In this document: positions 6,001 to 50,083 of the stretch, one piece after another
How the letters are laid out: every line of letters starts with the position of its first letter
How positions within the stretch are numbered: position 1 is the first letter of the stretch
Origin: Citreicella sp. C3M06
Lineage (GTDB): Bacteria > Pseudomonadota > Alphaproteobacteria > Rhodobacterales > Rhodobacteraceae
NCBI RefSeq assembly: GCF_018860705.1
Contig: NZ_JAHKQA010000097.1
Span: 1-57,946 of the forward strand
Length of the DNA: 57,946 bases
Direction of reading: 5' to 3'
Notes under the pieces: model-generated
Databases searched by the model: none
What the model was told of the DNA's origin: nothing
Seen by the model: the letters and a program-made list of their open reading frames with translations, nothing else
Position numbers and translations under genes: made by a program

Positions 6001-8096
6001 ACAAAGATCAGCGTGTCATCGTCGGCGCCGCCATGCAGAAACCGGTCGGGGCCGTGGTTGGCCTCGAGATAGTCGTTGCCAGTGCCGCCGAAGGCGACGT
6101 CGATGTCGTGATCGCCGAAGACGAAGTCGTCGCCGGCGCTGCCATGCACGAAATCGTCGCCCTTGTTGCCGCCGACATGGTCGTTGCCAAAGCCGCCGAA
6201 GATCACGTCGTTGCCATCGTAACCCGAGACGATGTCGTCGCCATTGCCGCCAAAAACGGTGTCGTCGCCCTCGTTGCCGGTGACGAAATCATTGCCGCTG
6301 CCGCCGAAGATCAGATCGTTTCCAAGCCCGCCACCGATCAGCGGATCGTCGCCCTCGCCGCCGTCGAGATGATCGTTGCCATCGCCGCCGTAAAGCTCGT
6401 CGGCGCCGGTTTCGCCAAAGACGGTATCATTGCCCTTGCCGCCCGACAGGATGTCGTTGCCCTCGTTGCCGCGCAGCAGATCGAAGCCGTCGTTGCCATC
6501 CAGCGTGTCGTTGCCAAGCCCGCCGATCAGCGTGTCGCGCCCACCTTCGTCGCCGCCCGACAGCATGTCATCACCCACGCCGCCCTCTAGCAGGTCGGAG
6601 CCCAGACCGCCGGTCAGCGTGTCGTTGCCCGCGTTGCCGATCAGCGTGTCATTGCCATCCTCGCCGTCGACGGAATCGTTGCCATCGCCGGCGGTGACGC
6701 TGTCGTTGCCCTCGTTTCCGTTGATGATGTCATCGCCGCCGCCCGCCTCGATGGTGTCATTGCCCAGCCCGCCATACAGGGCGTTGGCGGGTTCATTGGC
6801 GGTCAGAAGGTCATTGCCATCGCCGCCATACAGCGTGTCGAGGCCGGGGCCCGCATTCAGCGTGTCGTTGCCCGCGCCGCCCGACAGGATGTCGTCGCCC
6901 TCGCCGCCCTCGAGCAGATCGAAGCCGTCGTTGCCATCCAGCGTGTCATCGCCCAGCCCGCCGATCAGCGTGTCGCGCCCGCCGCCATCGCCGCCCGACA
7001 GGAAATCATTGCCTTCGCCGCCGTCGATGGCATCGGTGCCAAGCCCGCCCGACAGCGTGTCGCTGCCGCCCTCGCCCAGAATGGTGTCATCGCCATCCTC
7101 GCCGTCGACGCTGTCGTTGCCGCCGCCGGCGGTGATGCTGTCGTTGCCCTCGTTGCCGTTGATGGTGTCGTCACCGCCGTTCGAGGTGAGGGTGTCGTTG
7201 CCAAGCCCGCCGTACAGCCCGCTGCCGTCGGAGCCGCCGGTGATGCTGTCGTTGCCCTCGTCGCCCAGCAGCAGATCGCTGCCCAGACCCGCGAACAGCG
7301 TGTCATTGCCGGTGCCGCCGGTCAGCGTGTCATCGCCATCGCCGCCATCCAGCCGGTCGCCGAATTCGTTGCCGTCAAGGCTGTCATTGCCCGCGCCGCC
7401 GATCAGCGTGTCGGATTGATCGCCCCCCGACAGCGTGTCGTTGCCAGCCCCGCCCTCCAGACTGTCGGTGCCGAGACCGCCGGTCAGGCTGTCATCGCCA
7501 TCCTCGCCCTGCAACGTGTCATTGCCCTGCTCGCCGATCAACGTGTCATTGCCAGCCCCGCCTTGCAGCGTGTCAGAGCCGTCGTTGCCGTTCATCATGT
7601 CGGCGCCGTCGCCGCCCTGCAGGACATCGTTTTCGGTGCCGCCATACAGCGCGTCGCTGCCGCTGCCGCCGATCAGCGTGTCGGCCCCGTCCGAACCGAT
7701 CAGCTCATCGTCGCCGTCCTCGCCCGACAGACTGTCGTTGCCCGCCCCGCCGATCAGGCTGTCGTTGTCCGCGCCGCCGTCCATCACGTCGTTGCCAACG
7801 TTGCCCTGCATGTCGTCATTGCCCGCGCCGCCCTGCATCAGGTCGGCGCCGCCTTCGCCTACGAGCGTGTCGTTGCCATCGCCCCCGCTCAGGCTGTCGG
7901 CCTCGTCCGAGGCACCGCCCTGAATCGAATCGTCTCCCGCTCCGCCCTCCAGCACATCCTGCCCGGTGCCGCCCAGAAGGGTGTCATTGCCCCCAAGCCC
8001 AGTGAGCGTGTCATTGCCGGCAAACCCGGTGATGCTGTCCGCACCTTCCGTGCCAGCAAGCGCTTCTGAATTCGGGGTTCCGTTCACTACAGCCAC
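3066..8096 (-). CDS. giant RTX repeat protein (adhesin-like)
   Basis: This 1,676-residue acidic protein is built almost entirely of nine-residue calcium-binding RTX repeats (GGxGNDTLxG). Two non-repeat inserts stand out: about residues 690-1025, including a [20 protein letters not shown] type segment, and about 1130-1195 ([20 protein letters not shown]). The C-terminus, about 80 residues ending in SVDDFIFG, looks like an uncleaved type I secretion signal. There is no N-terminal signal peptide. The start is a GTG preceded by AAGGG; the frame is closed just upstream. Such proteins fold on meeting external calcium and often act as adhesins or matrix proteins. No type I secretion genes lie in the window, so the exporter must be elsewhere. 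An adhesin role is inferred; no recognised enzymatic domain was seen. Confidence 0.88.
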
Positions 8097-24072: not shown

Positions 24073-24690
24073 TTACAGCGATTTCAGGCAGAAAAAACAA
24101 TAGCGCGACAGTTCGGCAGTAAGGCCGGTTGCCGCATCGTCAAGATCGTCTTCGTAAAACAGGGAGAAAGATCCATACTGGTCGGACCCGCTGCGCCAGC
24201 CGGTTTGGGATCTCATGAAATCGGCGCGGGTCTTGAGAAAGGTCCTGCCAGTGGTGCGGTAAGCCTCAATGGCCAGCGGTCCGGTGCCCGACAGATCGAA
24301 GCTGAAGATCAGAATGTTTTCCGACAGGGTCTTGCGCTTGCGCAGATCGACCCCAGCGGGAAGCTTGGGCTCCGCGCCAGCCACTGACATGGCTGCGGCC
24401 GGGGGTTCAGATGCGGGTGCAGGTACAGATGCGGGACGCAACGTCGGGAGTCGGCCAGCGCGCTGCGCCGTCAACTCGACCGACAGAGCTGCAACCCGGG
24501 CGTTCAGGCGCTCAATCTCGCCGGTATCGCGGCGGATCTGCGCTGCGCAATCGTCGAGGCTGGAAATCAGGTCAGGTAGCAGGTCCGAGATCTGCAAAAG
24601 GCTTTGCACGTTAACCTCCCGAGCCGTTCCCTCCAGTGACTTAAGCGCTTGGGTCAGTCGTGCCGCGCGCTCCGCGTTTTGTGGAATCAT
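24073..24690 (-). CDS. hypothetical coiled-coil protein
   Basis: I do not recognise this 205-residue protein. Residues about 35-80 form a probable coiled coil (ISDLLPDLISSLDDCAAQIR and IERLNARVAALSVELTAQR). A Pro/Ala-rich linker follows (about 83-105), then a C-terminal domain with ENILIFSFDLSGTGPLAIEA and a closing SRYCFFCLKSL. The start at 24690 has no strong Shine-Dalgarno sequence. It lies 69 bases upstream of the GT2-GT4-GT4 gene in the same direction and probably shares its transcript. A coiled coil followed by a beta domain could help to organise the glycosyltransferase, but that is a guess. Confidence 0.6.
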   Translation of the reverse strand: MIPQNAERAARLTQALKSLEGTAREVNVQSLLQISDLLPDLISSLDDCAAQIRRDTGEIERLNARVAALSVELTAQRAGRLPTLRPASVPAPASEPPAAAMSVAGAEPKLPAGVDLRKRKTLSENILIFSFDLSGTGPLAIEAYRTTGRTFLKTRADFMRSQTGWRSGSDQYGSFSLFYEDDLDDAATGLTAELSRYCFFCLKSL

Positions 24691-26629: not shown

Positions 26630-27751
26630 TCAGCCTTCCAGAGACATCGGCATCTCGTAGCCATGCTCCTTGAGCAGGGCGTGGCGCTTGGCGGTCCGAA
26701 GGTCCTCGGCAACCATCTCGGCGCACATTTCCTGCGCGGTGATTTCCGGTACCCAGCCCAGTTTCTCCTTGGCCTTGGTCGGATCGCCCAGCAGGGTCTC
26801 GACCTCGGCGGGACGGAAATAGCGCGGATCGATCTTCATCAGCACATCGCCGGTCTTCACCGCCGGAGAGATCGCGTTGTCGACCGATTTGACGGTCGCG
26901 ATCTCGTCGACGCCGGTGCCGGTGAATTCCAGCTCGATGCCCAACTCCTTTGCCGACCACGAAATGAATTCACGCACGGAATACTGCACGCCGGTGCCAA
27001 TGACGAAATCCACCGCCTCGTCCTGCTGCAGCATCATCCACTGCATGCGCACGTAGTCCTTGGCATGGCCCCAGTCGCGCAGGGAGTCGATGTTGCCCAT
27101 GTAAAGGCAGCTTTCCAGCCCCTGAGAGATGTTCGACAGCCCGCGGGTGATCTTGCGGGTCACGAAAGTCTCGCCGCGGCGCGGGGACTCGTGGTTGAAC
27201 AGGATGCCGTTGCAGGCATACATGCCATAGCTCTCGCGGTAGTTCACCGTGATCCAGTAGGCGTACATCTTGGCCACGGCATAGGGCGAGCGCGGGTAGA
27301 AGGGGGTGGTTTCCTTCTGCGGCGTCTCCTGCACAAGGCCGAAGAGCTCGGATGTCGAGGCCTGATAGAAGCGGGTCTTCTTTTCAAGGCCAAGGAAACG
27401 GATCGCCTCGAGCAGGCGCAGCGTGCCGATGCCGTCGACGTCGGCGGTATATTCGGGGGCTTCGAACGACACGGCAACATGGGACTGGGCGCCGAGGTTG
27501 TAGACCTCGTCGGGCTGCACTTCCTGAATGATGCGCGTGAGGTTCGAGGTGTCGGTCAGATCACCGTAATGCAGCTTGAAATTCTGGTTGGTGACGTGGG
27601 GATCCTGATAGATGTGATCGACCCGGCCAGTGTTGAACAGCGATGCGCGGCGCTTGATGCCATGGACCTCGTACCCCTTCGCAAGCAGGAATTCCGCGAG
27701 GTACGAGCCATCTTGGCCAGTAACGCCTGTGATGAGTGCTTTTTTTGTCAT
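26630..27751 (-). CDS. gmd: GDP-mannose 4,6-dehydratase
   Basis: This 373-residue protein is full length. It begins [20 protein letters not shown] with the family-specific [12 protein letters not shown]-binding loop, continues with [20 protein letters not shown], and has the catalytic Y-x3-K in [33 protein letters not shown] is the conserved GDP-mannose-binding segment. It converts GDP-mannose to GDP-4-keto-6-deoxymannose in the cytoplasm, which Fcl turns into GDP-L-fucose. It is followed in the same direction by a sulfotransferase gene. The 178 bases upstream probably hold its promoter; I cannot define boxes there. Confidence 0.97.
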
Positions 27752-27929: not shown

Positions 27930-28883
27930 CTAAAAGCGCGGCATTACCGGTGATTCGGGGTCTGGATCATAGCCAAGCCGTGCACAGAGCGCATCATAGA
28001 CGGGCGCACCCTCGGCAAGCTGCTGCTTGACCGTATCGGGTAGCGGACGGCGCGGGCGAAGGCCGATGCGCTCGCTCTTTCGTCCGCTGTCGCCGGACAT
28101 GGTGACCAGAGGCAGAAAATCCCGCCAGCGCGGATCGAAAGGCAGATCAAGGCTGTCCGCAAGTCGGCGGCAACCGGTTTCGGGATCCTGCGCAAAATCT
28201 TCGTAGTAGTGCAAGTCTATGCTAGGACAGGCATCGAGGAACATCTCGTAACGCGCGGCGTAAAGCTCTAGCGTGCGCACCGGCGGGCGCGCCCAGTTCT
28301 CTCTGAGCATCGACACAAAGCTGTCGAGCGGGTGGCGCACGGTGATCGCTTGGCGCAGATCGAACTGCGGCGCAAGAAGCGCGGGCAGCGACGGGCGCGA
28401 CGAAGGATCCTCGGTAGCGCAGTAATGCGAATAGGTGTGATCACGGATCACCAGCCGCCGCCCCTCGGCTCCAAGATCCTCATGCAGCACCTTGAGCGCA
28501 GCGGTGAACATTCGCCCCACAGTGTCCATCTGTGGCGGGATGCGGGCTTTGAGCGCCTGATAGATTACGTCGCTCGGCGCAAAGTGATGCTGCGGCCCCA
28601 GCATGATATTACTGAAGGGATCGAGCTCGCTCAGCACCACGGTGTTTGGCTGGCTGGCCAGCGCGCGCGAGACCAGCGTGCCGCCGGTGCACGCGAAATG
28701 ATGCAGCAACCGCACGGGCTCAGGCCGCGCGGCGGCAAGTTTCGTGGTCTGGGCGCGACACTGGTCGAGCAGGCTTTCCAATGGCTCGTCACCCTGCCCA
28801 GCACGTACGCTGCGCGGCTGGTAGCCTTGCAGCAGCTCCAGCGCATCACCCACCAGAAGCTGCAGTTCCGAGCGTCTGGTCAT
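27930..28883 (-). CDS. sulfotransferase-like protein
   Basis: The 317-residue product has RLLHHFACTGGTLVSRALAS at about residues 58-77, a P-loop-like CTGGTLVSR in the position of the 5'-phosphosulfate loop, preceded by a helical N-terminus. AITVRHPLDSFVSMLRENW further on resembles the 3'-phosphate-binding motif (R-H-P-x-D-S). An LHYYEDFAQDPE segment near the end matches the conserved Y-E-D of bacterial sulfotransferases. Its start overlaps the stop of the methyltransferase-like coiled-coil gene as ATGA, so the two are made together. It may act on the same chain end as that protein, by inference. Confidence 0.72.
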   Translation of the reverse strand: MTRRSELQLLVGDALELLQGYQPRSVRAGQGDEPLESLLDQCRAQTTKLAAARPEPVRLLHHFACTGGTLVSRALASQPNTVVLSELDPFSNIMLGPQHHFAPSDVIYQALKARIPPQMDTVGRMFTAALKVLHEDLGAEGRRLVIRDHTYSHYCATEDPSSRPSLPALLAPQFDLRQAITVRHPLDSFVSMLRENWARPPVRTLELYAARYEMFLDACPSIDLHYYEDFAQDPETGCRRLADSLDLPFDPRWRDFLPLVTMSGDSGRKSERIGLRPRRPLPDTVKQQLAEGAPVYDALCARLGYDPDPESPVMPRF

Positions 28884-30994
28884 GCACCTCTCCTAGGCTT
28901 TCTGCGCTTCTTCGGAGCTTTGGGCACAGCGGGTTTCGCAGGGGTGTCCTGATCCGCAAGCCTTCGCGGGGTGTTCTGTGGTCCATTCAGCATATGAAGG
29001 TAATCCGAAGCGGCGCTCAGCCGCGTGGTCACCTGAATCAACAGCCCGTCGAGCGCGTCCTTTTCCTGGCGCAGCGTTTCAAACCGGCCACGCAGTTCCA
29101 GCAGGTCGGCCTGTGCCGCCGCTTGGCTGCGCAGGGCCACGCCCAAGTCGGTTTCCTTGCGCTCGAGACGAGCCTTGATATCCTTGAGCCAAGTGTCGCG
29201 ACGTGTGATGTTGTCTTCCGCGTTCGTGAGCTTGTCGGCAGCGGCCTCACTCTGCGCTCTGGCATCGGCGCGGGCCTGCTCGAGCGCCGCAGTTTCTCCG
29301 GCCAACCGTGCCTTGAGCGTGTCGCAGGTTTCTTCGCTCTGGCGCAGAGCCTCTTCGCGGTCCGTCAGCTGCGCCGAGGCGACCTTCTGGCTCGCCTCGT
29401 GGTCGCGCAGCCAGTTGTCACGACGGGTGATCCCTTCCTGCAGGGTCTCGCTGCGGGATTTTTGCACTGCCAGCTGGTCTTCCAGATCGGCCAGCGCCGC
29501 ATCAGCATCCGCCTTGGCGCTCGCAAGCGCAACCCGAGCCGCTTCGCGCTCCGCCGATCGCGCCTCGGAGGCTGCCAGCCGGTCTTCCAGATCGGCCAGC
29601 GCTGCATCAGCGTCCGCCTTGGCGCTCGCAAGCGCAACCCGAGCCGCTTCGCGCTCCGCCGATCGCGTTTCGGAGGCTGCCAGCCGGTCTTCCAGATCGG
29701 CCAGCGCAGCATCAGCCTCCGCCTTGGCGCTCGCAAGCGCAACCCGAGCCACTTCGCGCTCCGCCGATCGCGCCTCGGAGGCTGCCAGCCGGTCTTCCAG
29801 ATCGGTTGAAACCATCTCCAGCGCCGATTGCAGCGCGCTGATGCTCTCGTCTTGATCCCGCAAGGTCTCGGCTTGCTTCGCAAGCTCCATCTCCCGCTCT
29901 TCGGCCAGTCCACGGACATGAACGAAGTCGGTTTCCAGCGCCTCATGTGCGGCCCTAGCCTCCACTAGACTCGTGTCGTGGGCGGCCTTTGCTTCGGCCA
30001 GCGCCGTATTGCACTGTTTCAGTTTCGTCTCGACGGCTTGGACCCGGTTTTCAGTTCTGTCGAGCGCAAGACGTTGGCTGGTGGCCTCTTTTTCGGCGGC
30101 GCCAAGCGCCTTGCGCAGATAGCCATTCTCCGTCTTCAAGCTGTTCTCGCGCTTGGTGCAATCGACCAGTTGGGCCTCTAGCGATTGCGCGCGCTCGAAT
30201 TGCGCCTCAAGCGCCTGCGTGCATGTGTCTACATCTGTCTTCGCGGCATCCAGTGCGCTGCGAGTTTTGGAAAGGGCTGTATCGAGACCGGCGATGCGAT
30301 CCGCCTGATGCGCGGCCTCGGCCTGCGCCTCTGACAGCGCTACCCCAAGCCGGGACACCGCATCCACGCGCAGCACACAGGCGGGAAAATCCGGATCGCC
30401 GTTATCGCGCGACACAAGCCGATAGCCCGCATCCTGCACCAATGCCAACGCCTCGGACAGCGGCAACTCGCTCTCGTACAGCGGCTCGGCACCCGCGTGC
30501 AGCAGCACTTGGTCGAACTGTAGCATCCGCCCTGACTGCACCAGCTCTGCCAGCAACGCCGCGCTTTCGCCGGGCGCATCCAGCAGCACCAGAACCGACA
30601 CGTCCTCAGGCAGCGCCAACCTATCGAGCAGCGCACTTAGGCTAAGAACGTCAACCATCGGCGCATCGATTTCGCGCAGAGCCGGAAACAGCGTGGCAAG
30701 CGCGGGGCTGGGCGCGCGCAGGCTGGAATGCGCCTGCATATTGAACACGTGCAGCGGCGCGCGGGCTGGCGGAGTTTCGGCTGCCGAAACCGCTGCTGAG
30801 ATCAGCTCGACGCGAGTGTCACCGCGCGCCATCATCTCGAGCTCTGCAAGGCAATCGGGATTAGGCTCGACCAGTACAATCCGAGTAGCCGACAGATCCA
30901 GAAGCGCTGGCAGATCTTCGCCATAGCCTGCGCCGATGTGCAGGATCACCTCCGGACAGTTCTCCTGATCGATTCCGGCCAATTGCATCGTCAT
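28880..30994 (-). CDS. methyltransferase-like (FkbM-type) protein with long coiled coil
   Basis: The 704-residue protein has an N-terminal domain (about 1-215) resembling a class I SAM methyltransferase: VILHIGAGYGEDLPALLDL as the glycine-rich loop and IVLVEPNPDCLAELEMM with the acidic ribose-binding residue, as in FkbM-type enzymes. Residues about 215-660 form a continuous charged coiled coil. Residues 398-502 are three near-identical 35-residue repeats (DLEDRLAASEARSAERE...), each exactly five heptads. The last 18 residues are strongly basic (KAPKKRRKPRRGA), suited to membrane or nucleic-acid contact. The layout recalls WbdD, where a chain-terminating methyltransferase carries a coiled-coil ruler. 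No kinase domain is visible, and activity is unproven. It overlaps the downstream sulfotransferase gene. Confidence 0.7.
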   Translation of the reverse strand: MTMQLAGIDQENCPEVILHIGAGYGEDLPALLDLSATRIVLVEPNPDCLAELEMMARGDTRVELISAAVSAAETPPARAPLHVFNMQAHSSLRAPSPALATLFPALREIDAPMVDVLSLSALLDRLALPEDVSVLVLLDAPGESAALLAELVQSGRMLQFDQVLLHAGAEPLYESELPLSEALALVQDAGYRLVSRDNGDPDFPACVLRVDAVSRLGVALSEAQAEAAHQADRIAGLDTALSKTRSALDAAKTDVDTCTQALEAQFERAQSLEAQLVDCTKRENSLKTENGYLRKALGAAEKEATSQRLALDRTENRVQAVETKLKQCNTALAEAKAAHDTSLVEARAAHEALETDFVHVRGLAEEREMELAKQAETLRDQDESISALQSALEMVSTDLEDRLAASEARSAEREVARVALASAKAEADAALADLEDRLAASETRSAEREAARVALASAKADADAALADLEDRLAASEARSAEREAARVALASAKADADAALADLEDQLAVQKSRSETLQEGITRRDNWLRDHEASQKVASAQLTDREEALRQSEETCDTLKARLAGETAALEQARADARAQSEAAADKLTNAEDNITRRDTWLKDIKARLERKETDLGVALRSQAAAQADLLELRGRFETLRQEKDALDGLLIQVTTRLSAASDYLHMLNGPQNTPRRLADQDTPAKPAVPKAPKKRRKPRRGA
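29489..29803 (-). repeat. three tandem 105-bp repeats inside the coiled-coil gene
   Basis: Three in-frame 105-bp units follow each other exactly (29803-29699, 29698-29594, 29593-29489) and differ at only a few bases; a degenerate fourth start follows. Each encodes 35 residues, a whole number of coiled-coil heptads, so gain or loss of a unit would keep both reading frame and coil register. The high identity suggests recent duplication. Confidence 0.9.
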
Positions 30995-31035: not shown

Positions 31036-31935
31036 CTAGAATTCCAGCCCGCTGCGTTCAATCGCACGGCGAGCCCGCATCAGCCGCTGCGCCATGTCCG
31101 AAAACGAGCTCCAAGTGCTGGCAAGAAGGCGCTGCGTCGCAGTCAGCAACAGCAGGTCTGCCAGCGCGTATTGCAGCTGTTCTTCGGACCGATCGAACCG
31201 CGCGCGGCTCAGCATCCGCAGCCGCGGCCCATAGCGGTCGGCGAACAGAGCGTAGGTGTCGGGCAGATCGGCGGCAAGGAAGATCGTATCGGCCTTGCCC
31301 GCGGCAAGCAGCACGTCAATGCGGGCAACGAACCGGCTGGAATGGCTTTTCTCGCGCCATTCTGCGATTTCGCGGTGGCGGTGTTCGGGCCAGTTATCGG
31401 GGCCTTCCTCGGGGCGGTGGTCGTGGCCGGTGCCACTAGCCATGCGGATATGGGCGCTGACCGCGCTGGGGGTCGGCACCTGGGCCACCAGATCGGCCAC
31501 CGCCGCCGATGGGCGCAGCCCATGCAGAAATGCCTGCTCATCCTCGAGCCGCCGCAGCGGCGAGCGCAACGTGTAGGCCGACCGGATATACAGATCGCCC
31601 CCGCACCGCGCCGGGTACACCTGCGCGCCATGGCGCGAACCGGGCTCGACTTCCATGTCATTGAACACCTGCGCCGCGGATGCGCGGCACAGGTCGGCAA
31701 CGCCGTCCTCAATCACCGGACCGGGATAATCGAACAGATCGCGCATCCGGGCACCGCAATGGATGTCGGTGCGCCAGACCACGAAGAGATCATGTTCGGC
31801 CTGCCGCGCGATTGAGGCGGCCGAGGCAATGGTGCGCATCCGGTTTGCAAGCCCGTGCTGGGCGTCGATGAACAGCCGCGGCCGGGCAATGCGATGGGGC
31901 GGGGCGGGCAGATGAGGCAGGGCGGGCCGGCTCAC
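31036..31935 (-). CDS. fucosyltransferase-like protein (O-FucT/NodZ superfamily)
   Basis: The 299-residue protein contains RLFIDAQHGLANRMRTIASA near the N-terminus and FVVWRTDIHCGARMRDLFD soon after, the layout of GDP-fucose-dependent transferases with an early G-x-x-N-R loop. SAVSAHIRMAS resembles the basic HxR GDP-fucose-binding segment, and IFLAADLPDTYALFADRYG followed by LLTATQRLLASTWSSFSDMA matches the C-terminal donor region of the O-FucT/GT23 superfamily. GDP-fucose is made in this window, so fucosyl transfer is plausible, but a different donor is possible. The start overlaps the stop of the upstream coiled-coil gene as ATGA; the methyltransferase-like gene begins 41 bases downstream in the same direction. 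Confidence 0.62.
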   Translation of the reverse strand: MSRPALPHLPAPPHRIARPRLFIDAQHGLANRMRTIASAASIARQAEHDLFVVWRTDIHCGARMRDLFDYPGPVIEDGVADLCRASAAQVFNDMEVEPGSRHGAQVYPARCGGDLYIRSAYTLRSPLRRLEDEQAFLHGLRPSAAVADLVAQVPTPSAVSAHIRMASGTGHDHRPEEGPDNWPEHRHREIAEWREKSHSSRFVARIDVLLAAGKADTIFLAADLPDTYALFADRYGPRLRMLSRARFDRSEEQLQYALADLLLLTATQRLLASTWSSFSDMAQRLMRARRAIERSGLEF

Positions 31936-33077
31936 TTGCGAAAGCCATAGCGAATCGACCGGATCGCCCCGGCGATTTTCCAGGATTTCGAGTCATGGAT
32001 ATGGTTGAGCTCGGAGCGCGCCTGATCCAGCTCGCCCCTCAGCGCCGTAAGCTTGCGATCCTGTTCGTCGATGTCCTTTTGCTGCAGGTCGGCCATCTCG
32101 GCTTGGCTGCGGCAGGTTTCGTCGGCCTTGGCCAGTTCCAGTTCAAGTGCTCGCATCCGGGCACTGCGGTCGTCGATTTTGGCGCGCAGGACGTCCATCT
32201 GCCCGCGCAACGCCTCGGCCTCGGACCACAGCGTTTTGGCCTCGCGACTGCGGGCATCCGCATCGCGACCAATCTCAAGCAACTCTGACCCGATCGCCGC
32301 CTCGCGCAGCGCGGCGTCTTCGGCCTCGACCGCAATCCGGGCCTCAAGGCCGTCACGCTCAGCCTGAAGCAGCGCGCGGGCTGCCGTTTCGTCGGCAAGC
32401 TGGTGTTGCAGCTCAATCAGTCCGGCGCGCAGCAAGCGACAGCTTTCTTCAAGCGCGGCTTGCTGCAGCGCAAGCCTAGGGTCGGCCGCTGCCGAAAGAT
32501 CAGCAAAGGCACGGTCGAGCTTGGCCAGTTCCAATGGCGGATGCAGATCTCCGACGATGCTGGCGCTCATTTCTTCGGCCAGCCCGCGTAGGCGGGGAGT
32601 GGATTTGAGCAGGTGCCGGGCAAGGATTTCGTGCAGCGCAGCGCCCGGGTTTTCGGGCACGGTCGCAGGCGAGGGCAGATCACCAAAGCCGCAGCCGAGC
32701 CGATCGGCTAGCGGCTTGATCAACGTGCCGGGGGTGGCCAGCAACGTGTCCTCGCCCAGCAGCAGCACCCGTGCGCGGGCCCGACGCAGCAAGGCCAGCT
32801 GCGCCTCAGCCCAAACCTGCCAGTCGGCCACGGCTTTTGATGGTGGCACCCCGCTCGCCAACGCCCGCGCCAACATGCGTTCGGGCATTGCCGCCACCGC
32901 CAGCACCGGACCATCGCCGTGCAGGGCCGCCTCAAGCGTTGCCGCTACCACACTATCGGGCCGGGGGTCAGCCGCGCCTAGAAGCGCCGTCAGCATGTCG
33001 GTTGCCGCGGGGAACTCGGTGAGGGATACGAGGGTCAGCACCGGGGTGCCATCGCTCTGAAAATCGGTCTGTGCCAT
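31932..33077 (-). CDS. coiled-coil protein with C-terminal SKSW motif
   Basis: The N-terminal 180 residues of this 381-residue protein are globular and unrecognised (VLTLVSLTEFPAATDMLTAL; RARVLLLGEDTLLATPGTL). Residues about 200-360 are a charged coiled coil. The C-terminus HDSKSWKIAGAIRSIRYGF is a variant of the S-x-SW-R-x-T-x-P-L-R tail that follows coiled coils in many polysaccharide-cluster glycosyltransferases and methyltransferases. I start at the ATG at 33077, which has GGAAG five bases upstream; the frame is open to a TTG at 33134. It is the second long coiled-coil protein in the same operon and overlaps the fucosyltransferase-like gene. A scaffold or chain-length role is possible but not shown. 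Confidence 0.65.
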   Translation of the reverse strand: MAQTDFQSDGTPVLTLVSLTEFPAATDMLTALLGAADPRPDSVVAATLEAALHGDGPVLAVAAMPERMLARALASGVPPSKAVADWQVWAEAQLALLRRARARVLLLGEDTLLATPGTLIKPLADRLGCGFGDLPSPATVPENPGAALHEILARHLLKSTPRLRGLAEEMSASIVGDLHPPLELAKLDRAFADLSAAADPRLALQQAALEESCRLLRAGLIELQHQLADETAARALLQAERDGLEARIAVEAEDAALREAAIGSELLEIGRDADARSREAKTLWSEAEALRGQMDVLRAKIDDRSARMRALELELAKADETCRSQAEMADLQQKDIDEQDRKLTALRGELDQARSELNHIHDSKSWKIAGAIRSIRYGFRK

Positions 33078-33130
33078 CTTATCTTCCATATCGCAGAGCA
33101 TATTCAGCAGGTTCCCCTGCCGGTGCAAGA

Positions 33131-34528
33131 TCAACCCTTCAGCACGCTGCCCAGTTTTTCGAGGTGGATCGCCAGCAACTCGTCGGCGCGCGAGGGGCTG
33201 GCCGCTTCGGTGTAGCAGCGAAATTCCGGCGCGTTGCCCGAGGGGCGCAGATGCACCACATCGCCGCCGTCAAAGCTGACGCGCAGCCCGTCGGTCAGGT
33301 CGATGCCGGCTTCCGGACCGACGCCCTCGAAGAACACCGCCCGCGCGCCCGCATCGGTGCCCAGCTCGTTGAGCAGCCGCCCCGAGGCTTCGGGGGCAAT
33401 GCCGGTCAGCCGGTCGGCGGCGGTGAAGCGCGGCGGCAGCGCGGCGGCCAGATCCGCCAGCGGCACGCCCCCTGCCCTGGCCGCGGCCAGCGGCGCGAGG
33501 ATCGGCAACAGGCAATCGCGGGTCATCAGCGGCGCCAGCGGCCCGGCGGGCGCATCGGCGGTAAAGCCCAGCAGAAAGCCGCCGTTGGCTTCGTAGCCGA
33601 CCACCTTGGCCGACGGATCGGCGGCCAGCGCCTCTTCCATGGCGGCGATGACGAAGGGCGAGCCGATGCGGGTGCTGTCGACGCGCGCGAACTCCTCCAT
33701 CTGCGCCACCAGCGTATTCGAGGACACCGGCGTGCAGATCACCTTGGCCCCCAGCGCGCGGGCGGTGAGCGGGCCCAGAACATCGCCGGGCACGATGGCG
33801 CCCTGCGCATCGGCCACCATTGGGCGGTCGGCATCGCCATCGGTCGAGATCAGCGCATCAAGGTGATTGTCCGCGCACCAGCCCGCCAGCCCGGCGCGGG
33901 TTTGCGGATCGACCGCCTCGGTGTCGACGGGGATGAAGATGTCGGAGCGGGCCAGCGACACGGGCGTGGCGCCAAGCGCCGCGACCACGCGCACCATGAT
34001 GTCGCGCGCCACCGAGCTGTGCTGGTAAACGCCAATGCGCATCCCCGCCAACGCCGCCGGGCCGAAGGCATCAGCGTAGCGCGCAACATAGGCATCCGAA
34101 GCGGCGCTGCCCGCGTCGATGCGCGCGCCTGCGCCGCTGCCTGTCGGGGCCGACAGGCCCGCCTTGATGCCCTCTTCGTCGGCCTTCGAGATCTCGCCCA
34201 TGGGGGTGTAGAATTTCAGCCCGTTGCGATCGGCGGGGATATGGCTGCCGGTGATCATCACCGCCCCCTGCCCTGCCTGCAACGAGGCCAGCGCCAGCGC
34301 CGGGGTCGGAAGCGCGCCATGCACCACCGCATCCAGCCCGGCCGCCTGCACCGCTGCGATGACGCTATCGGCAATCTCGGGCGAGGAGGGTCGCAGATCC
34401 CAGCCCACATGCACCGCCCCGCCCGAGGGGCAGGCGGCCAGAAAGGCGCTTGTGTAGTCACGCACGAGGTCGGGTGTCAGCTCGGTGACGAGGCCGCGCA
34501 GACCGCTGGTGCCGAATTTGGGAGCCAT
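33131..34528 (-). CDS. manB: phosphomannomutase / phosphohexomutase
   Basis: The 465-residue enzyme has all four motifs of the alpha-D-phosphohexomutase family: AVMITGSHIPADRNGLKFY with the phosphoserine, STDGDADRPMVAD for magnesium binding, VGYEANGGFLLG for sugar binding, and VHLRPSGNAPEFRCYTEA for phosphate binding. It begins MAPKFGTSGLRGLVTELTPD. With manC it would supply mannose-1-phosphate for GDP-mannose and GDP-fucose. Phosphoglucomutase activity cannot be excluded. AAGGAT precedes the ATG. It is read leftward into the coiled-coil, fucosyltransferase-like and methyltransferase-like genes. Confidence 0.92.
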   Translation of the reverse strand: MAPKFGTSGLRGLVTELTPDLVRDYTSAFLAACPSGGAVHVGWDLRPSSPEIADSVIAAVQAAGLDAVVHGALPTPALALASLQAGQGAVMITGSHIPADRNGLKFYTPMGEISKADEEGIKAGLSAPTGSGAGARIDAGSAASDAYVARYADAFGPAALAGMRIGVYQHSSVARDIMVRVVAALGATPVSLARSDIFIPVDTEAVDPQTRAGLAGWCADNHLDALISTDGDADRPMVADAQGAIVPGDVLGPLTARALGAKVICTPVSSNTLVAQMEEFARVDSTRIGSPFVIAAMEEALAADPSAKVVGYEANGGFLLGFTADAPAGPLAPLMTRDCLLPILAPLAAARAGGVPLADLAAALPPRFTAADRLTGIAPEASGRLLNELGTDAGARAVFFEGVGPEAGIDLTDGLRVSFDGGDVVHLRPSGNAPEFRCYTEAASPSRADELLAIHLEKLGSVLKG

Positions 34529-45651: not shown

Positions 45652-46470
45652 TCAGGCATTCAGGATGTCGCGGTGGAAGCGGCCCAGCAGCAGCACCCCC
45701 AGTGCCGTCAGTCCGAGCCCCAGCCCCACCACATAAGTGTGGCTGATGTATTGTGGATCGTAGCTCGGATAAAAGCCGCTGCGGAAGATCCCGCTTATGT
45801 GCATCAAGGGGTTCCACCACAGGATGTCCTGCGCCATCGTCGGCAGCGTCTCATAGGTAAAGATGACACCCGACATGAGAAAAAGCGGCCGGGTTGCGAT
45901 TGACCAGATCTGGGACCAGACTGGGTAGAGTCCGGAGATCACGCAGTTGATCAGCCCGACGCCAATACCGATGAGTATTGTCTCAAGCACCGCCGCAAGT
46001 ACCGGGCCAAATTCCAGCGTGCTGCGGGTCTCGCTTAGCAGGATGATTCCGGTCAGGATCAAAAAACCCACCATCACCTGTGTCAGGCTGTTCAGAATCA
46101 CCCGCGCAAACAGCGCATCGACCCAGGTCACCGTCGGGTAGAGCAGCAGCGGCCGGGAAAAGTTGATGATGCTGCTCGAGGTCATCGACAGCGACTGGTA
46201 GGCGCCAAATGGCAGGAAGCCGGTGGCGTAAAACAGCGGAAAGCTGTTTCCCAGCGGCGGGGTCTTTACGACCATAGAGAACACCAGCGTCAGCACGAAG
46301 ATCGCCCCGAGAGGCTCAAGGACAGCCCAGACATATCCCCCCGGAGAGGCGCCGTAGCGGGTCGACATTTCGCGCAGCATCAGCGCAATGATGGTGCGCA
46401 GGGTGGCAAAGCGCCGCCGCTTGGCGTTGACAGGTCTCAGGGCTTCTGGAACAAGGTGCTCCGCCGACAT
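45652..46470 (-). CDS. kpsM: ABC-2 type polysaccharide exporter, membrane subunit (KpsM-like)
   Basis: The 272-residue protein has about six hydrophobic segments, including AIFVLTLVFSMVV, VMVGFLILTGIILL and VVGLGLGLTALGVLLLG. The N-terminal LRTIIALMLREMSTRYGASP followed by GGYVWAVLEPLG is the family signature of KpsM/Wzm/BexB permeases. It would form the channel for a lipid-linked polysaccharide across the inner membrane with the KpsT-like ATPase. The ATG at 46470 has AAAGGAA upstream; the longer open frame lacks a ribosome site. It is divergent from kpsE and kpsT, across 86 bases that must hold both promoters. Confidence 0.92.
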   Translation of the reverse strand: MSAEHLVPEALRPVNAKRRRFATLRTIIALMLREMSTRYGASPGGYVWAVLEPLGAIFVLTLVFSMVVKTPPLGNSFPLFYATGFLPFGAYQSLSMTSSSIINFSRPLLLYPTVTWVDALFARVILNSLTQVMVGFLILTGIILLSETRSTLEFGPVLAAVLETILIGIGVGLINCVISGLYPVWSQIWSIATRPLFLMSGVIFTYETLPTMAQDILWWNPLMHISGIFRSGFYPSYDPQYISHTYVVGLGLGLTALGVLLLGRFHRDILNA

Positions 46471-46556
46471 GGCTCGATTTCCTTTCATCTCGGCTCGGGC
46501 GCCAGTTATGTCGAAACGCGGCACGAGATCAAACGGCTTGTTCAAAGGACGGCGGC

Positions 46557-47957
46557 TTGCCTGACCAGAAAGACCCCAACGAGCGCACCGGCGGGCAGGC
46601 ATCTGCCGCCGATACCGGTCGCGCACCCCAGCAACAGACCGGCCCGGCACGGCCCGGTGGCACAGGCGCAAAACCCGGACCCGGGCCTCGTGCTGGCCAA
46701 GGCAATCAGGGGGGGCAGGCCGGCCTGAACAGGCAGGCTGGCAATGGCGGCCAGAGCGGCCCCAAGGGTGGCCGTGGCCCGGCCCAGGGCAAGCCTGCGG
46801 CCGTGGTCGAAGTTGCGCCCATCGCCGCCCCGGCCCGCATGAAGCGCCGCCACTGGGGGCTGATCCTCAGCTTCGTGCTGATGGTGCTGCTGCCGTTTGC
46901 GGTGACGGTGGTCTACCTCACCGAGGTGGCGGCCGACCAGTATTCCTCGACCACCGGCTTTACCGTCCGGCAGGAGGACAGCAGCAGCGCCACTGATCTG
47001 CTCGGCGGTCTGGCCAGCATCACCGGCTCGTCGACCTCGTCAGAGGCAGACATCCTGTATGAATTCATCCAGAGTCAGGAAATCGTCGAACGCATCGACG
47101 CCGAGCTCGACCTGCGCAGCTATTACGCGCAGCACTGGTCCACGGACCCGGTGTTCTCGTTGTGGCCGGATGCCACCATCGAAGACCTGCTGTGGTTCTG
47201 GCCGCGCGTGGTGCGCATCAGCTACGATCAGGGCACCGGTCTGATCGACCTCGAGGTGCTGGCCTTCGATGCGCCGATGGCGCAGAAGATTTCGCAGCTG
47301 ATCGTGCGCGAGAGCCAGGAGATGATCAACCAGCTCAACGAGGCGGCGCGCGAGGATGCGATGCGCTATGCCCGCTCGGATCTCGAGGATTCGCTGGCCC
47401 GGCTCAAGACCGCGCGCGAGGCGCTGACCCAGTTCCGCACCCGCACCCAGATCGTTGATCCCGCGACCGATCTTCAGGGCCGCATGGGGGTGCTGAGCAA
47501 CCTTCAGCAGCAGCTGGCCGAGGCGCTGGTGCAATATGATCTGGTGCGCGGCGACGCCCGCGACGGCGATCCGCGTCTGGTGCAGGAACGCCGCCGCATC
47601 GAGGTGATCCGCGCCCGCATCGCCGAAGAGCGGCAGAATTTCGCCTCGGCGGACGGCAGCGCCGAAACCGGCGGGTTGTCGGAAAGCTATCCCAGTCTGA
47701 TCGGCGAATTCGAAAGCCTGACGGTCGACCAGTCCTTTGCCGAGGAAACCTATCGCGCCGCGCTGACCGCGCTGGATGTGGCCCGGGCCAATGCCTCGCG
47801 CCAGAGCCTGTATCTGGCCGCCTATGTGCGCCCGACGCTGGCGCAAAGTTCGGAATACCCACAGCGCGGCATGATTTCGCTGCTGGTGGGGCTGTTCGCC
47901 TTTCTGGCATGGGGGACGCTGGCGCTGATCTATTACAGCATCCGCGACCGGCGCTGA
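46557..47957 (+). CDS. kpsE: capsule export inner-membrane protein (KpsE-like, PCP family)
   Basis: The 466-residue protein starts at TTG 46557, with AAAGGAC seven bases upstream. A long cytoplasmic Gly/Pro/Gln-rich N-terminus (residues 1-90) precedes membrane segment one (LILSFVLMVLLPFAVTVVYL), a periplasmic coiled-coil region (about 240-400), and membrane segment two (ISLLVGLFAFLAWGTLALIY) near the C-terminus. DQYSSTTGFTVRQEDSSSA after the first segment is typical of KpsE/CtrB/BexC proteins, which link the ABC exporter to the outer-membrane pore. No partner KpsD-like protein is present in this window. The disordered N-terminal extension is longer than in E. coli KpsE. Confidence 0.9.
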   Translation: MPDQKDPNERTGGQASAADTGRAPQQQTGPARPGGTGAKPGPGPRAGQGNQGGQAGLNRQAGNGGQSGPKGGRGPAQGKPAAVVEVAPIAAPARMKRRHWGLILSFVLMVLLPFAVTVVYLTEVAADQYSSTTGFTVRQEDSSSATDLLGGLASITGSSTSSEADILYEFIQSQEIVERIDAELDLRSYYAQHWSTDPVFSLWPDATIEDLLWFWPRVVRISYDQGTGLIDLEVLAFDAPMAQKISQLIVRESQEMINQLNEAAREDAMRYARSDLEDSLARLKTAREALTQFRTRTQIVDPATDLQGRMGVLSNLQQQLAEALVQYDLVRGDARDGDPRLVQERRRIEVIRARIAEERQNFASADGSAETGGLSESYPSLIGEFESLTVDQSFAEETYRAALTALDVARANASRQSLYLAAYVRPTLAQSSEYPQRGMISLLVGLFAFLAWGTLALIYYSIRDRR

Positions 47958-47964
47958 GGCGCGC

Positions 47965-48618
47965 ATGATCCGGTTCGAGAATCTGACAAAGAGCTTTCGG
48001 GTCAACGGGCAGCGGCAGGTGGTCATCGACAACCTGACCGCCGAGCTGCCCTCGGGCAAGTCGCTGGCGCTGCTCGGGCGCAACGGGGCGGGCAAGTCGA
48101 CGTTGCTGCAACTGATCGCGGGCACCTTGCAGCCCGACAGCGGGCGCATTCTCAGCGACGGCACGATCTCATGGCCGGTGGGCTTTGGTGCCTCGTTCCA
48201 CCGCGAACTGACCGGCGCGCAGAACGTGCGCTTCGTGGCGCGCATCTATGGGGTGGATACGGATTCCCTGCTGGCCTTTGTCGAGAACTTTGCCGAGCTG
48301 GGGGCGCATTACCACATGCCGGTGCGCAGCTATTCGGCGGGGATGCGCGGGCGGCTGGTGTTCGGCACCTCGATGGGCATCCATTTCGACACCTACCTTG
48401 TGGACGAGGTCACCGCCGTTGGCGACCAGCAGTTCCGGCGCAAGAGCAAAGCGGTGTTTCTTGAGCGCATGAAGACCTCCAGCGCCATCATGGTCAGCCA
48501 CGAGATGGCGCAGGTCAAGGCGTTCTGCAACGCCGGCCTGGTGCTGGACCGCGGCCGGGTGACCTATTTTGACGATCTTGACGAAGCCATCGACATGCAC
48601 GAACGGCTTCTCGCGTGA
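47965..48618 (+). CDS. kpsT: ABC polysaccharide exporter, ATP-binding subunit (KpsT-like)
   Basis: The 217-residue ATPase has Walker A GRNGAGKST, a YSAGMRGRL signature loop, Walker B YLVDEVTAVGD and switch histidine VSHEM. Its size matches KpsT of group 2 capsules. It has no C-terminal carbohydrate-binding extension of the Wzt type, so export is unlikely to depend on recognition of a terminal modification by this subunit. It begins seven bases after kpsE and should be made with it. Confidence 0.95.
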   Translation: MIRFENLTKSFRVNGQRQVVIDNLTAELPSGKSLALLGRNGAGKSTLLQLIAGTLQPDSGRILSDGTISWPVGFGASFHRELTGAQNVRFVARIYGVDTDSLLAFVENFAELGAHYHMPVRSYSAGMRGRLVFGTSMGIHFDTYLVDEVTAVGDQQFRRKSKAVFLERMKTSSAIMVSHEMAQVKAFCNAGLVLDRGRVTYFDDLDEAIDMHERLLA

Positions 48619-48787: not shown

Positions 48788-50083
48788 ATGAGGACCACGG
48801 GCAGCAGTGGCACGGCTTCGGCCGAGAGTTTGGATGAGCTGATCGAAGGGACGCCCGGCAACGACACGCTGGACAGCGGCGCGGGCAACGACACGGTACG
48901 GGCGGGCGCGGGCAACGACCGGGTGTCGCTGGGCTCGGGCGATGATGTCTACTCCGACAGTTCGGGCGCGGGCAATGACAGCGCCTGGGGCGGGGCGGGC
49001 GATGACACGCTGAATGGCGGTAACGGCAACGACCTGCTCTACGGCGAGGATGGTGACGATGACTTCTGGGGCGGCTGGGGCGATGACACGCTTTGGGGCG
49101 GGGCGGGCAATGATCTGCTGCGCGGCAGCCTTGGGGCCGACCGGCTGTATGGCGAGGATGGCAACGACACGGTCTGGGGCGGCAACGGCACCGACCTGAC
49201 CTGGCTGGGGGCGGGCAATGACCTGTACGGCGACAGCACCCAAGGCGGCAACTGGGGGCGCGATACGGTCTGGGGCGGGGCGGGCAATGACACCATCCGC
49301 ACCGGCGGTGGCAATGATGTGCTGCATGGCGAAGCGGGCCGCGACCGGCTTGAAGGCGGTGGGGGCAACGACCGGCTGACTGGCGGGGCGGACAACGACG
49401 TGCTTCTGGGTGGCGACGGGGCCGATACGCTGGACGGCGGCATCGGCAATGACACGTTGCGCGGCGGGCGCGGCACCGACAGCGCCACGCTGGGCGATGG
49501 TGATGATCTTTACACCGACACCGGGCAGGGCGGGGCATATGGCGCCGACAGCGTCTGGGGCGGGGCGGGCAATGACACGATCAACACCGGCGGCGGCGAT
49601 GATTACGTGCGCGGCGAGGCTGGCGACGACCGGCTGGTCGGGGCCTATGGCAACGATACCCTGCGCGGCGGCGACGGCGCCGACAGCCTCTATGGCGGCG
49701 TGGGCAGCGACCGGCTGGTGGGGCAGAACGGCAATGATCTGCTGCTGGGCGAGGGCGGCGACGACCGCCTGCTGGGCGGGGCGGGCAACGACACGCTGAA
49801 CGGCGGGGCGGGCGATGATCTGCTGATCGGCGACGGTGACAGCGATGCCTTTGTCTTTGCGCCGGGCGGCGGATCTGACCGGATCGACGATTTCGAACTG
49901 GGCATCGACAAGCTGCACCTCGACGATGGGCTCTGGTCCGGCTCGTTGAGCGCCGCCGAGATCATCGACCGTTTCGCCACTGTGGTCAGCGATGGCGTGG
50001 TGCTGGATTTCGGCGCCGACCAGATCCGCCTTGATGGCATCGCCAACCCGGAGGATCTGGCGCCCGATATCATCCTGTACTGA
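48788..50083 (+). CDS. RTX repeat protein
   Basis: The 431-residue protein begins MRTTGSSGTASAESLDELIE and consists of GGxGNDxLxG calcium-binding repeats up to about residue 345. A longer variant unit with GDDLYTDTGQGGAYGADSVW pattern recurs three times (about residues 50, 145 and 240). The C-terminus (DAFVFAPGGGSDRIDDFELG to PDIILY) is a typical RTX secretion module, closely similar to that of the convergent metalloprotease. There is no signal peptide, so type I secretion is expected. The start has GGATATGAGAG upstream. A structural or calcium-scavenging extracellular role is likely; no catalytic domain is present. Confidence 0.85.
   Translation: MRTTGSSGTASAESLDELIEGTPGNDTLDSGAGNDTVRAGAGNDRVSLGSGDDVYSDSSGAGNDSAWGGAGDDTLNGGNGNDLLYGEDGDDDFWGGWGDDTLWGGAGNDLLRGSLGADRLYGEDGNDTVWGGNGTDLTWLGAGNDLYGDSTQGGNWGRDTVWGGAGNDTIRTGGGNDVLHGEAGRDRLEGGGGNDRLTGGADNDVLLGGDGADTLDGGIGNDTLRGGRGTDSATLGDGDDLYTDTGQGGAYGADSVWGGAGNDTINTGGGDDYVRGEAGDDRLVGAYGNDTLRGGDGADSLYGGVGSDRLVGQNGNDLLLGEGGDDRLLGGAGNDTLNGGAGDDLLIGDGDSDAFVFAPGGGSDRIDDFELGIDKLHLDDGLWSGSLSAAEIIDRFATVVSDGVVLDFGADQIRLDGIANPEDLAPDIILY

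What the first reader, a model, noticed from the sequence alone, without database searches (positions are those of the whole stretch)
29489..30994. Methyltransferase-like protein with a coiled coil built from five-heptad repeats: a possible tunable polysaccharide chain-length ruler
Seen: an N-terminal SAM-methyltransferase-like domain, about 450 residues of coiled coil, and three near-identical 105-bp units each encoding exactly 35 residues, i.e. five complete heptads. Gaining or losing a unit keeps frame and coil register and changes coil length by about 5 nm. Known: in E. coli O9a the chain-terminating WbdD uses a coiled coil as a length ruler in an ABC-exported polysaccharide. Inference: this gene, in an operon with fucosyltransferase-like and sulfotransferase genes on a replicon with an ABC exporter, may set chain length, and unequal recombination could change length between strains.
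Basis: partly seen in the sequence, partly recalled or inferred. Interest (0 to 1): 0.82.

Follow-up and report, generated by a model that had tools for sequence, protein, structure and literature searches.

The report
Stretchable adaptor beside sugar-sulfating enzyme
A marine bacterium carries a protein with a methyltransferase-shaped head, a long helical arm that relatives lengthen or shorten by whole repeat units, and a tail matched to the enzyme encoded next to it, so it looks more like an adjustable holder for a sulfate-adding enzyme than a proven ruler for sugar-chain length.

Summary
The gene is longer than reported (28880-30994, minus, 704 aa): an FkbM-like head with a class I methyltransferase fold, about 450 residues of predicted helix, 3.2 copies of a 105-bp unit (95% alike), and a conserved C-terminal module with a basic end. 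One prediction was borne out in relatives: two Leisingera plasmids differ by one clean 105-bp unit, and what follows the head runs from 26 to 591 residues. Against the O9a/WbdD ruler: the full GxGxG SAM loop is kept in 17 of 47 heads; no Wzt_C domain was found in the host assembly, and the replicon's ABC ATPase has 217 aa; a relative's plasmid lists flippase and O-antigen-ligase genes but no KpsM/KpsT in the 50 kb read. New: the C-terminal class predicts the next gene. All 24 class-A loci precede one sulfotransferase family; 7 of 8 class-B loci precede a protein with a shared TPR-like half and differing catalytic halves; one relative fuses head to sulfotransferase with no arm or tail. Best reading: an adaptor or tether pairing a (pseudo)methyltransferase head with a sulfotransferase on surface-polysaccharide replicons. 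A length-setting role is untested and less likely.

The parts
28880..30994 (-). focal protein, 704 aa: FkbM-like head, helical arm, class-A C-terminal module, basic tail
30350..30994 (-). head domain, residues 1-215; class I methyltransferase fold, GAGYG loop and E43 present
28997..30349 (-). helical arm, residues 216-666
   Evidence: full-length model; 3.5-residue periodicity outside the repeat block
29467..29805 (-). 3.2 tandem copies of a 105-bp / 35-residue unit
28982..29149 (-). class-A C-terminal module, residues 616-671 (LGVALRSQ..DLLELRGRFE..LL..VTTRL..AS.YL); overlaps the end of the predicted helix
   Evidence: motif present in 24 of 37 related loci
28883..28981 (-). basic tail, residues 672-704 (KKRRKPRR), low model confidence
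   Evidence: sequence; pLDDT mostly under 50
27930..28883 (-). partner sulfotransferase (ST3), PF13469; overlaps the focal gene by 4 bases
   Evidence: pairing
31036..31935 (-). upstream gene read as fucosyltransferase-like (no Pfam match at E 0.01; label is recalled motif similarity)
   Evidence: homologs near some relatives
31932..33134 (-). upstream protein with a helical stretch, ending in SKSWKIAGAIRS; overlaps the previous gene by 4 bases
26630..27751 (-). GDP-mannose 4,6-dehydratase
   Evidence: TIGR01472 573.8 bits, cut-off 415
46557..47957 (+). KpsE/BexC/CtrB-family export protein (below curated cut-off)
   Evidence: TIGR01010 E 8.8e-66, 222.4 bits, cut-off 437.5
47965..48618 (+). ABC ATPase, 217 aa, no Wzt_C match
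   Evidence: Wzt_C not found in the host assembly
45652..46671 (-). KpsM-like ABC permease (start uncertain; below the NCBIfam cut-off)

Best explanation
The protein is an adaptor for a polysaccharide-modifying enzyme. Its FkbM-like head, a methyltransferase fold whose full SAM loop is kept in this protein but not in most relatives, is joined by a helical arm to a conserved C-terminal module that docks the sulfotransferase encoded by the next, overlapping gene; the basic tail may lie on the membrane. The pair is held together so that sulfation happens on, or near, what the head binds. The arm is a spacer of loosely constrained length that grows and shrinks by unequal recombination between in-frame units. 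Shown here: the anatomy by prediction, the near-obligate gene pairing, the match between C-terminal class and partner class, a one-unit difference between two close relatives. Inferred: physical docking, membrane contact of the tail, what the head binds, the recombination mechanism, and any effect on the glycan.
For: All 24 class-A loci have an ST3 homolog as the next gene, although their other neighbours differ; Ensifer keeps the pair. From the enzyme's side, of 24 ST3 hits at E up to 1e-25 in 394 genomes, 21 lie beside or inside a coil-family gene by coordinates and one more (G279) follows an arm end with a class-A module on a contig where the head is on another contig. Class-B C-termini are followed in 7 of 8 loci by proteins sharing one half with differing catalytic halves. 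On a tree of the 31 heads whose partner was seen, class changes 6 times, at least 3 of them forced by well-supported branches. Leisingera caerulea has a head 78% identical to that of M527, but tail class and partner both differ. L048 is one frame (539 aa from the head start) of head plus ST3 with neither arm nor module. L077 has a head, no arm, no module and no ST3 in the 15.5 kb read. What follows the head runs from 26 to 591 residues while heads stay near 210. The focal gene and ST3 overlap by 4 bases.
Against: Tail and partner are adjacent on DNA, so one recombination in the arm moves both; their match could be linkage rather than docking. Two of 24 ST3 hits (G225, G024) have no coil gene beside them, L076 has a second ST3-like ORF (35% identical, 79% covered) about 6 kb away from its coil gene, and only the 5 best candidates per genome were scored, so free ST3 genes may be undercounted. 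L068 has a class-B tail but no such partner. The focal head keeps GAGYG and E43 and may be an active methyltransferase. The fusion is a single case. No interaction was modelled or measured.
Confidence: 0.45

Rival explanations
1. Chain-length ruler of the WbdD type: the head (or the head with the sulfotransferase) caps the growing chain, the arm sets the distance to the polymerase at the membrane, and unit number sets polymer length.
For: Same order of parts: methyltransferase-fold head, long helical arm, conserved C-terminal module. A coiled-coil protein carrying the terminator is described as characteristic of this assembly strategy (PMC11231755, abstract and passages); insertions or truncations in the WbdD coil shift chain length (PMC5082667, passages). 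Arm length differs by one whole unit between close relatives.
Against: Wzt_C found in 0 of 1 host assembly, while the same search rings in 2 of 14 control genomes; the ATPase here has 217 aa and no Wzt_C match. Full SAM loop in 17 of 47 heads. The constant neighbour of class A is a sulfotransferase. The M527 plasmid lists flippase, ligase and export genes and no KpsM/KpsT between 62 and 112 kb, from an incomplete gene table. The fusion L048 has no arm.
Confidence: 0.2
2. An ordinary FkbM-type O-methyltransferase of a surface polysaccharide whose arm only oligomerises it; arm length drifts because any in-frame unit is tolerated.
For: Fold and intact loop in the focal head; fkbM_fam E 1.5e-6; the first glycine of the loop is kept in 44 of 47 heads, the second in 36, the acidic residue E43 in 38; lengths after the head from 26 to 591 look unconstrained.
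Against: Score below the family cut-off (28.7 against 37.7 bits). In 30 of 47 heads the full loop is not kept, while L99 and P104 are the same in all 47. The sulfotransferase pairing is not explained. In the M527/NJS204 pair dN/dS is about 0.19 in the arm, against neutral drift of its sequence (and about 0.46 in the head, on 12 differences, one pair, rough).
Confidence: 0.22
3. A structural scaffold of the cell surface or export complex unrelated to sulfation; pairing with ST3 reflects co-transfer of a gene cassette.
For: Genes sit on polysaccharide replicons with varied neighbours; linkage can create co-inheritance.
Against: Most ST3 hits are in this pairing (22 of 24) and one is fused to the head.
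Confidence: 0.13

Closest known systems
WbdD of E. coli O9a/O8 and related coiled-coil terminators (K. pneumoniae O4 ORF7, O7 ORF6, O12 WbbB)
   Same: Methyltransferase-fold head in several of them, helical arm after the head, functional C-terminal region (passages of PMC3482155, PMC5082667, PMC11231755).
   Different: No kinase domain found (O8 WbdD has none either); no Wzt_C found; the neighbour is a separate sulfotransferase; full SAM loop in a minority of relatives; the arm would be about 67 nm if one straight helix (455 residues, my arithmetic), against about 20 nm for WbdD.
FkbM family methyltransferases (TIGR01444, PF05050)
   Same: Residues 16-135 match positions 1-112 of the 143-position TIGR01444 model; predicted class I fold.
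   Different: Below the curated cut-off; no Pfam match at E 0.01; D-x-P-G where FkbM proteins usually have K-x-D-x-E-G (the latter recalled); adds a helical arm and C-terminal module.
PF13469 sulfotransferases
   Same: The partner gene matches over the cut-off (E 6.1e-9) and keeps a CTGGT loop.
   Different: A subfamily found mostly beside the coil protein (22 of 24 hits).
Roseobacter rhamnose-operon ('biofilm') plasmids
   Same: RepA-type initiator, ParA/ParB-like genes, nucleotidyltransferase/RmlD-like/dehydratase genes and polysaccharide genes on one contig; plasmid type known from recall and the listing.
   Different: Not a claim about the focal protein; I read no paper on these plasmids.

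Membership tests
WbdD-type coiled-coil chain terminator | catalytic head with methyltransferase (and kinase, in O9a) fold | tested here: met
WbdD-type coiled-coil chain terminator | long parallel coiled coil after the head | tested here: inconclusive
   helical at moderate confidence; heptad period outside but not inside the repeat block; oligomer state unknown
WbdD-type coiled-coil chain terminator | export through Wzm/Wzt with a carbohydrate-binding Wzt domain that reads the cap | tested here: not met
   PF14524: 0 of 1 host assembly, 96% complete; 2 of 14 control genomes ring
WbdD-type coiled-coil chain terminator | C-terminal region recruits the polymerase | not testable with these tools
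   C-terminal class goes with a sulfotransferase gene instead
WbdD-type coiled-coil chain terminator | arm length sets chain length | not testable with these tools
   needs glycan sizing
WbdD-type coiled-coil chain terminator | sequence or fold match to WbdD itself | tested here: inconclusive
   not among the rows shown, which are capped or weak lists
FkbM family (TIGR01444) | score over the curated cut-off | tested here: not met
   28.7 against 37.7 bits; relative P0003 34.7
FkbM family (TIGR01444) | class I fold with a glycine-rich SAM loop | tested here: met
   fold and GAGYG in the focal head; only 17 of 47 heads keep the full loop
Sulfotransferase PF13469 (partner gene) | match over the gathering score | tested here: met
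   36.9 against 27 bits; partner homologs L012 24.8 (below) and L014 30.6 (above)

The most novel reading that the evidence does not exclude
A modular carrier family for glycan-modifying enzymes: one (pseudo)methyltransferase head plus an extensible arm plus a class-specific docking tail, with tail and enzyme swapped together as a cassette (ST3 sulfotransferase; or a TPR-like protein whose catalytic half is a sulfotransferase type, an unidentified second type, or FkbM-like), and with arm length tuned by tandem-unit gain and loss, so that the modification or length pattern of a surface polysaccharide can change in one recombination step.
Probability: 0.3. Interest if true: 0.75.

Novelty: new variant of a known kind. 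Interest (0 to 1): 0.55.

Why it matters
It offers a natural series of arm lengths and two closely related plasmids one unit apart, so the question whether a helical arm measures or merely tethers can be tested by comparing existing strains. It also ties an uncharacterised head and tail to a specific sulfotransferase family, giving a handle on how marine bacteria place sulfate on surface polysaccharides.

Tried and rejected
Literature: FkbM + coiled-coil + polysaccharide + sulfotransferase, FkbM + coiled-coil + polysaccharide and roseobacter + sulfated polysaccharide + sulfotransferase returned no paper; coiled-coil + tandem repeat + chain length + polysaccharide + methyltransferase returned two that I judged off topic from the listing; molecular ruler + coiled-coil + O-antigen + length variation returned only PMC5082667. 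These bound only the held open-licence library.

One origin for the 35-residue units of different lineages was tested by circular alignment: outside the Leisingera trio, window against L054 gives p 0.01 and L009 against L054 p 0.03, the other pairs p over 0.05, so I do not claim homology. Exporters near relatives: one KpsM match (L050) and no KpsE or KpsT match at E 1e-10 among 41 non-window loci of about 8 to 18 kb, inconclusive because the stretches are short. Plain Kyte-Doolittle periodicity over the whole arm was weak (20 of 500 shuffles reach it); a core-residue measure by segment was clearer. WbdD is not among the rows shown; that is no proof of difference. No close relative of the focal gene itself was found for a copy-number comparison: 6 of 72,556 plasmid records match, none over 80% of its length; the nearest head is 52% identical and its gene is cut by a contig end.

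Rows dropped: L045 (same record as L011), L073-L075 (other architecture), the second L072 row and weaker hits were left out of the 37 loci; P0014 (other architecture) and duplicates P0002, P0005 and P0007 out of the 47 heads. P0004 and P0009 were labelled class A by hand and the class-B motif was loosened. The Fisher table was a provisional guess; the counted one is.

Full report
What is there. The gene runs from 30994 to 28880 on the minus strand and encodes 704 aa. The tandem array lies at 29467-29805: period 105 bp, 3.2 copies, 95% matches, no indels; the second and third copies are 96% and 97% identical to the first. The focal gene overlaps the start of the next gene, a PF13469 sulfotransferase (E 6.1e-9; called ST3 here), by 4 bases. 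Upstream lie a gene read as fucosyltransferase-like (no Pfam match at E 0.01) and another protein with a helical stretch; further downstream lies gmd.

The replicon. A RepA-type initiator (PF10134), ParA-like and ParB-like genes, a KpsE-type protein, a KpsM-like permease, a 217-aa ABC ATPase and nucleotidyltransferase, RmlD-like and dehydratase genes share the 57.9-kb contig. Contig G016:C7 of the same genus has the same length as Salipiger profundus pTPRO6 and carries a homolog, so I infer Salipiger; the host name was not given.

Relatives. A search of 394 genomes of the family with a head alignment gave 48 genomes at E up to 1e-8, with at most 7 candidates scored per genome. After dropping duplicates, other architectures and weak hits I kept 37 loci: the window, six plasmid records, and thirty, three of which (L076-L078) came from the genus search. 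Protein searches gave 4 sequences (the window's own included, with only the 7996 best candidates scored) and 11; ten of these join the 37 to make 47 heads. Heads are near 210 residues throughout; what follows the head, module included, ranges from 26 (L077) to 591 (L070) residues. L064 and L078 are cut by contig ends, and L048 carries a sulfotransferase in place of an arm.

Length change by units. The coil genes of Leisingera M527 (486 aa) and NJS204 (451 aa) align with one gap of exactly 105 bp. Outside it, head DNA differs at 12 of 645 sites, arm at 57 of 462 and tail at 16 of 246; dN/dS by region is about 0.46, 0.19 and 0.10 (one pair). Leisingera sp. MMG026 has 451 aa and McT4-56 546 aa. 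Tandem Repeats Finder, taking for each lineage an array of period at least 63 bp and score at least 250 and counting the three Leisingera once, gives 17 lineages with an array out of 35. Basic unit lengths in residues are 35 (five lineages), 56 (two), 70, 49, 28 and 21 (L057, whose best array is 63 = 3 x 21); and 39, 74, 151, 32, 66 and 64 (L053, whose best array is 128 = 2 x 64). Eleven of 17 are multiples of seven; a binomial with chance 1/7 gives 2.7e-6. The arrays were chosen after seeing them, lineages are not fully independent, and heptad background similarity could favour such periods, so I treat this as support and not proof. Four of the other six leave a remainder of 4, as one 11-residue stutter would. 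The 35-residue units of different lineages are mostly no more alike than shuffles. For the focal gene itself no close relative was found, so its own unit number was not compared.

C-terminal class and partner. Two C-terminal motifs were seen. By motif, 24 of the 37 loci are class A, 8 class B and 5 neither: two cut by contig ends, the fusion L048, the armless L077, and L066, which has an ST3 homolog beside it. The next gene is an ST3 homolog in 24 of 24 class-A loci; in Gemmobacter (L011) it is divergent, 30% identical, with an altered loop and a C-terminal extension. In 7 of 8 class-B loci the next gene shares a common half (BLAST joins every pair of the seven at E 1e-4; TPR matches in L009 are weak and below cut-off) with one of three catalytic halves: a sulfotransferase type (L009, L047; weak PF13469 match, E 0.0018, in L009), a second type I did not identify (L058, L063, L069), and a type that I read as FkbM from motifs I recall (L046, L072). 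L068 has no such partner. The 24/0 against 0/8 table has Fisher p 9.5e-8, ignoring relatedness. On a tree of all 47 heads class B needs 8 changes, 7 forced by well-supported branches, but four of its 12 class-B rows are database proteins whose next gene I did not see. On the 31 loci with the partner seen, class changes 6 times, 3 of them forced. So the association has been renewed several times. The head of L. caerulea (class B) is 78% identical to that of M527 (class A), yet tail and partner both differ.

From the enzyme's side. ST3 searched in 394 genomes of the family gave 24 hits at E up to 1e-25, with at most 5 candidates scored per genome. By coordinates 21 are beside, or fused to, a coil-family head. 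G279 has an arm end with a class-A module directly upstream of ST3 on one contig, and its head at the end of another. G225 and G024 have none. L076, in the genus search, has a second ST3-like ORF about 6 kb from its coil gene on the other strand. L048 is a single frame of head plus ST3 with a linker and no arm or module.

Is the head an enzyme? Searching for GxGxG with A, S or T in second place finds 17 of 47 heads, the focal one among them. Taken singly, the three glycines are kept in 44, 36 and 19 of 47, and the acidic residue E43 in 38, so a partial loop is common. L99 and P104 of the 'LFPGL' segment are the same in 47 of 47; D200 and D202 of 'DPDxP' in 44 of 47. The strictest conservation thus lies outside the SAM loop, which suggests, without showing, that methyl transfer is not the shared function.

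Ruler or tether. WbdD caps O9a chains, and its coil holds the cap activity away from the polymerase; coil insertions or truncations shift length (PMC5082667 passages; PMC3482155 passages). Coiled-coil terminators are described as characteristic of this assembly strategy (PMC11231755 abstract and passages). Here the cap-reading Wzt_C domain was not found in the host assembly. The M527 plasmid between 62 and 112 kb lists an exopolysaccharide transport protein, an export protein, a flippase and an O-antigen ligase, and no KpsM or KpsT; that gene table is incomplete, and which polymer the coil protein serves is unknown. I therefore favour an adaptor or tether (0.45), with the ruler at 0.2.

Limits. 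Tail and partner are linked on DNA, so their match is not by itself proof of contact. The copy number in the window comes from an assembly of 106 contigs. The homologous genes of G003 and G279 break at contig ends inside the arm, as repeats can cause, so counts may be underestimates. All functions are inferred.

Noticed in passing
L048:4090-5985: Head fused directly to the ST3 sulfotransferase in one frame, without arm or C-terminal module.
   Followed up: partly
L011:7574-9802: Gemmobacter ST3-like protein with an altered nucleotide loop and a C-terminal extension (weak methyltransferase match, E 0.0016, below cut-off).
   Followed up: no
L004:2318-3778 (minus strand): The upstream neighbour gene, read by eye, is also a helical protein with a near-identical repeat of about 67 residues, ending in a SWKITEPLR motif; arm repeats are not confined to the focal gene.
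   Followed up: no
window 24073-24690 (minus strand): Short 205-aa ORF with no Pfam or NCBIfam match, possibly a decayed gene of the same locus.
   Followed up: no
window 3066-8096 (minus) and 48788-50083 (plus): ORFs with many 27-bp units; the second matches RTX calcium-binding repeats strongly, the first was not scanned.
   Followed up: no
G003:C71 and C64 ends; G279:C17 and C4 ends: In two relatives the assembly breaks inside the arm of the homologous gene, as a collapsed repeat would cause.
   Followed up: partly
M527 versus NJS204 coil gene (L012, L013): Synonymous divergence is about ten times higher in the arm than in the head, suggesting recombination or unit turnover in the arm.
   Followed up: partly
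L076, about 6 kb upstream of the coil gene, other strand: A second ST3-like ORF (35% identical) without a coil-family gene directly beside it in the BLAST table.
   Followed up: no
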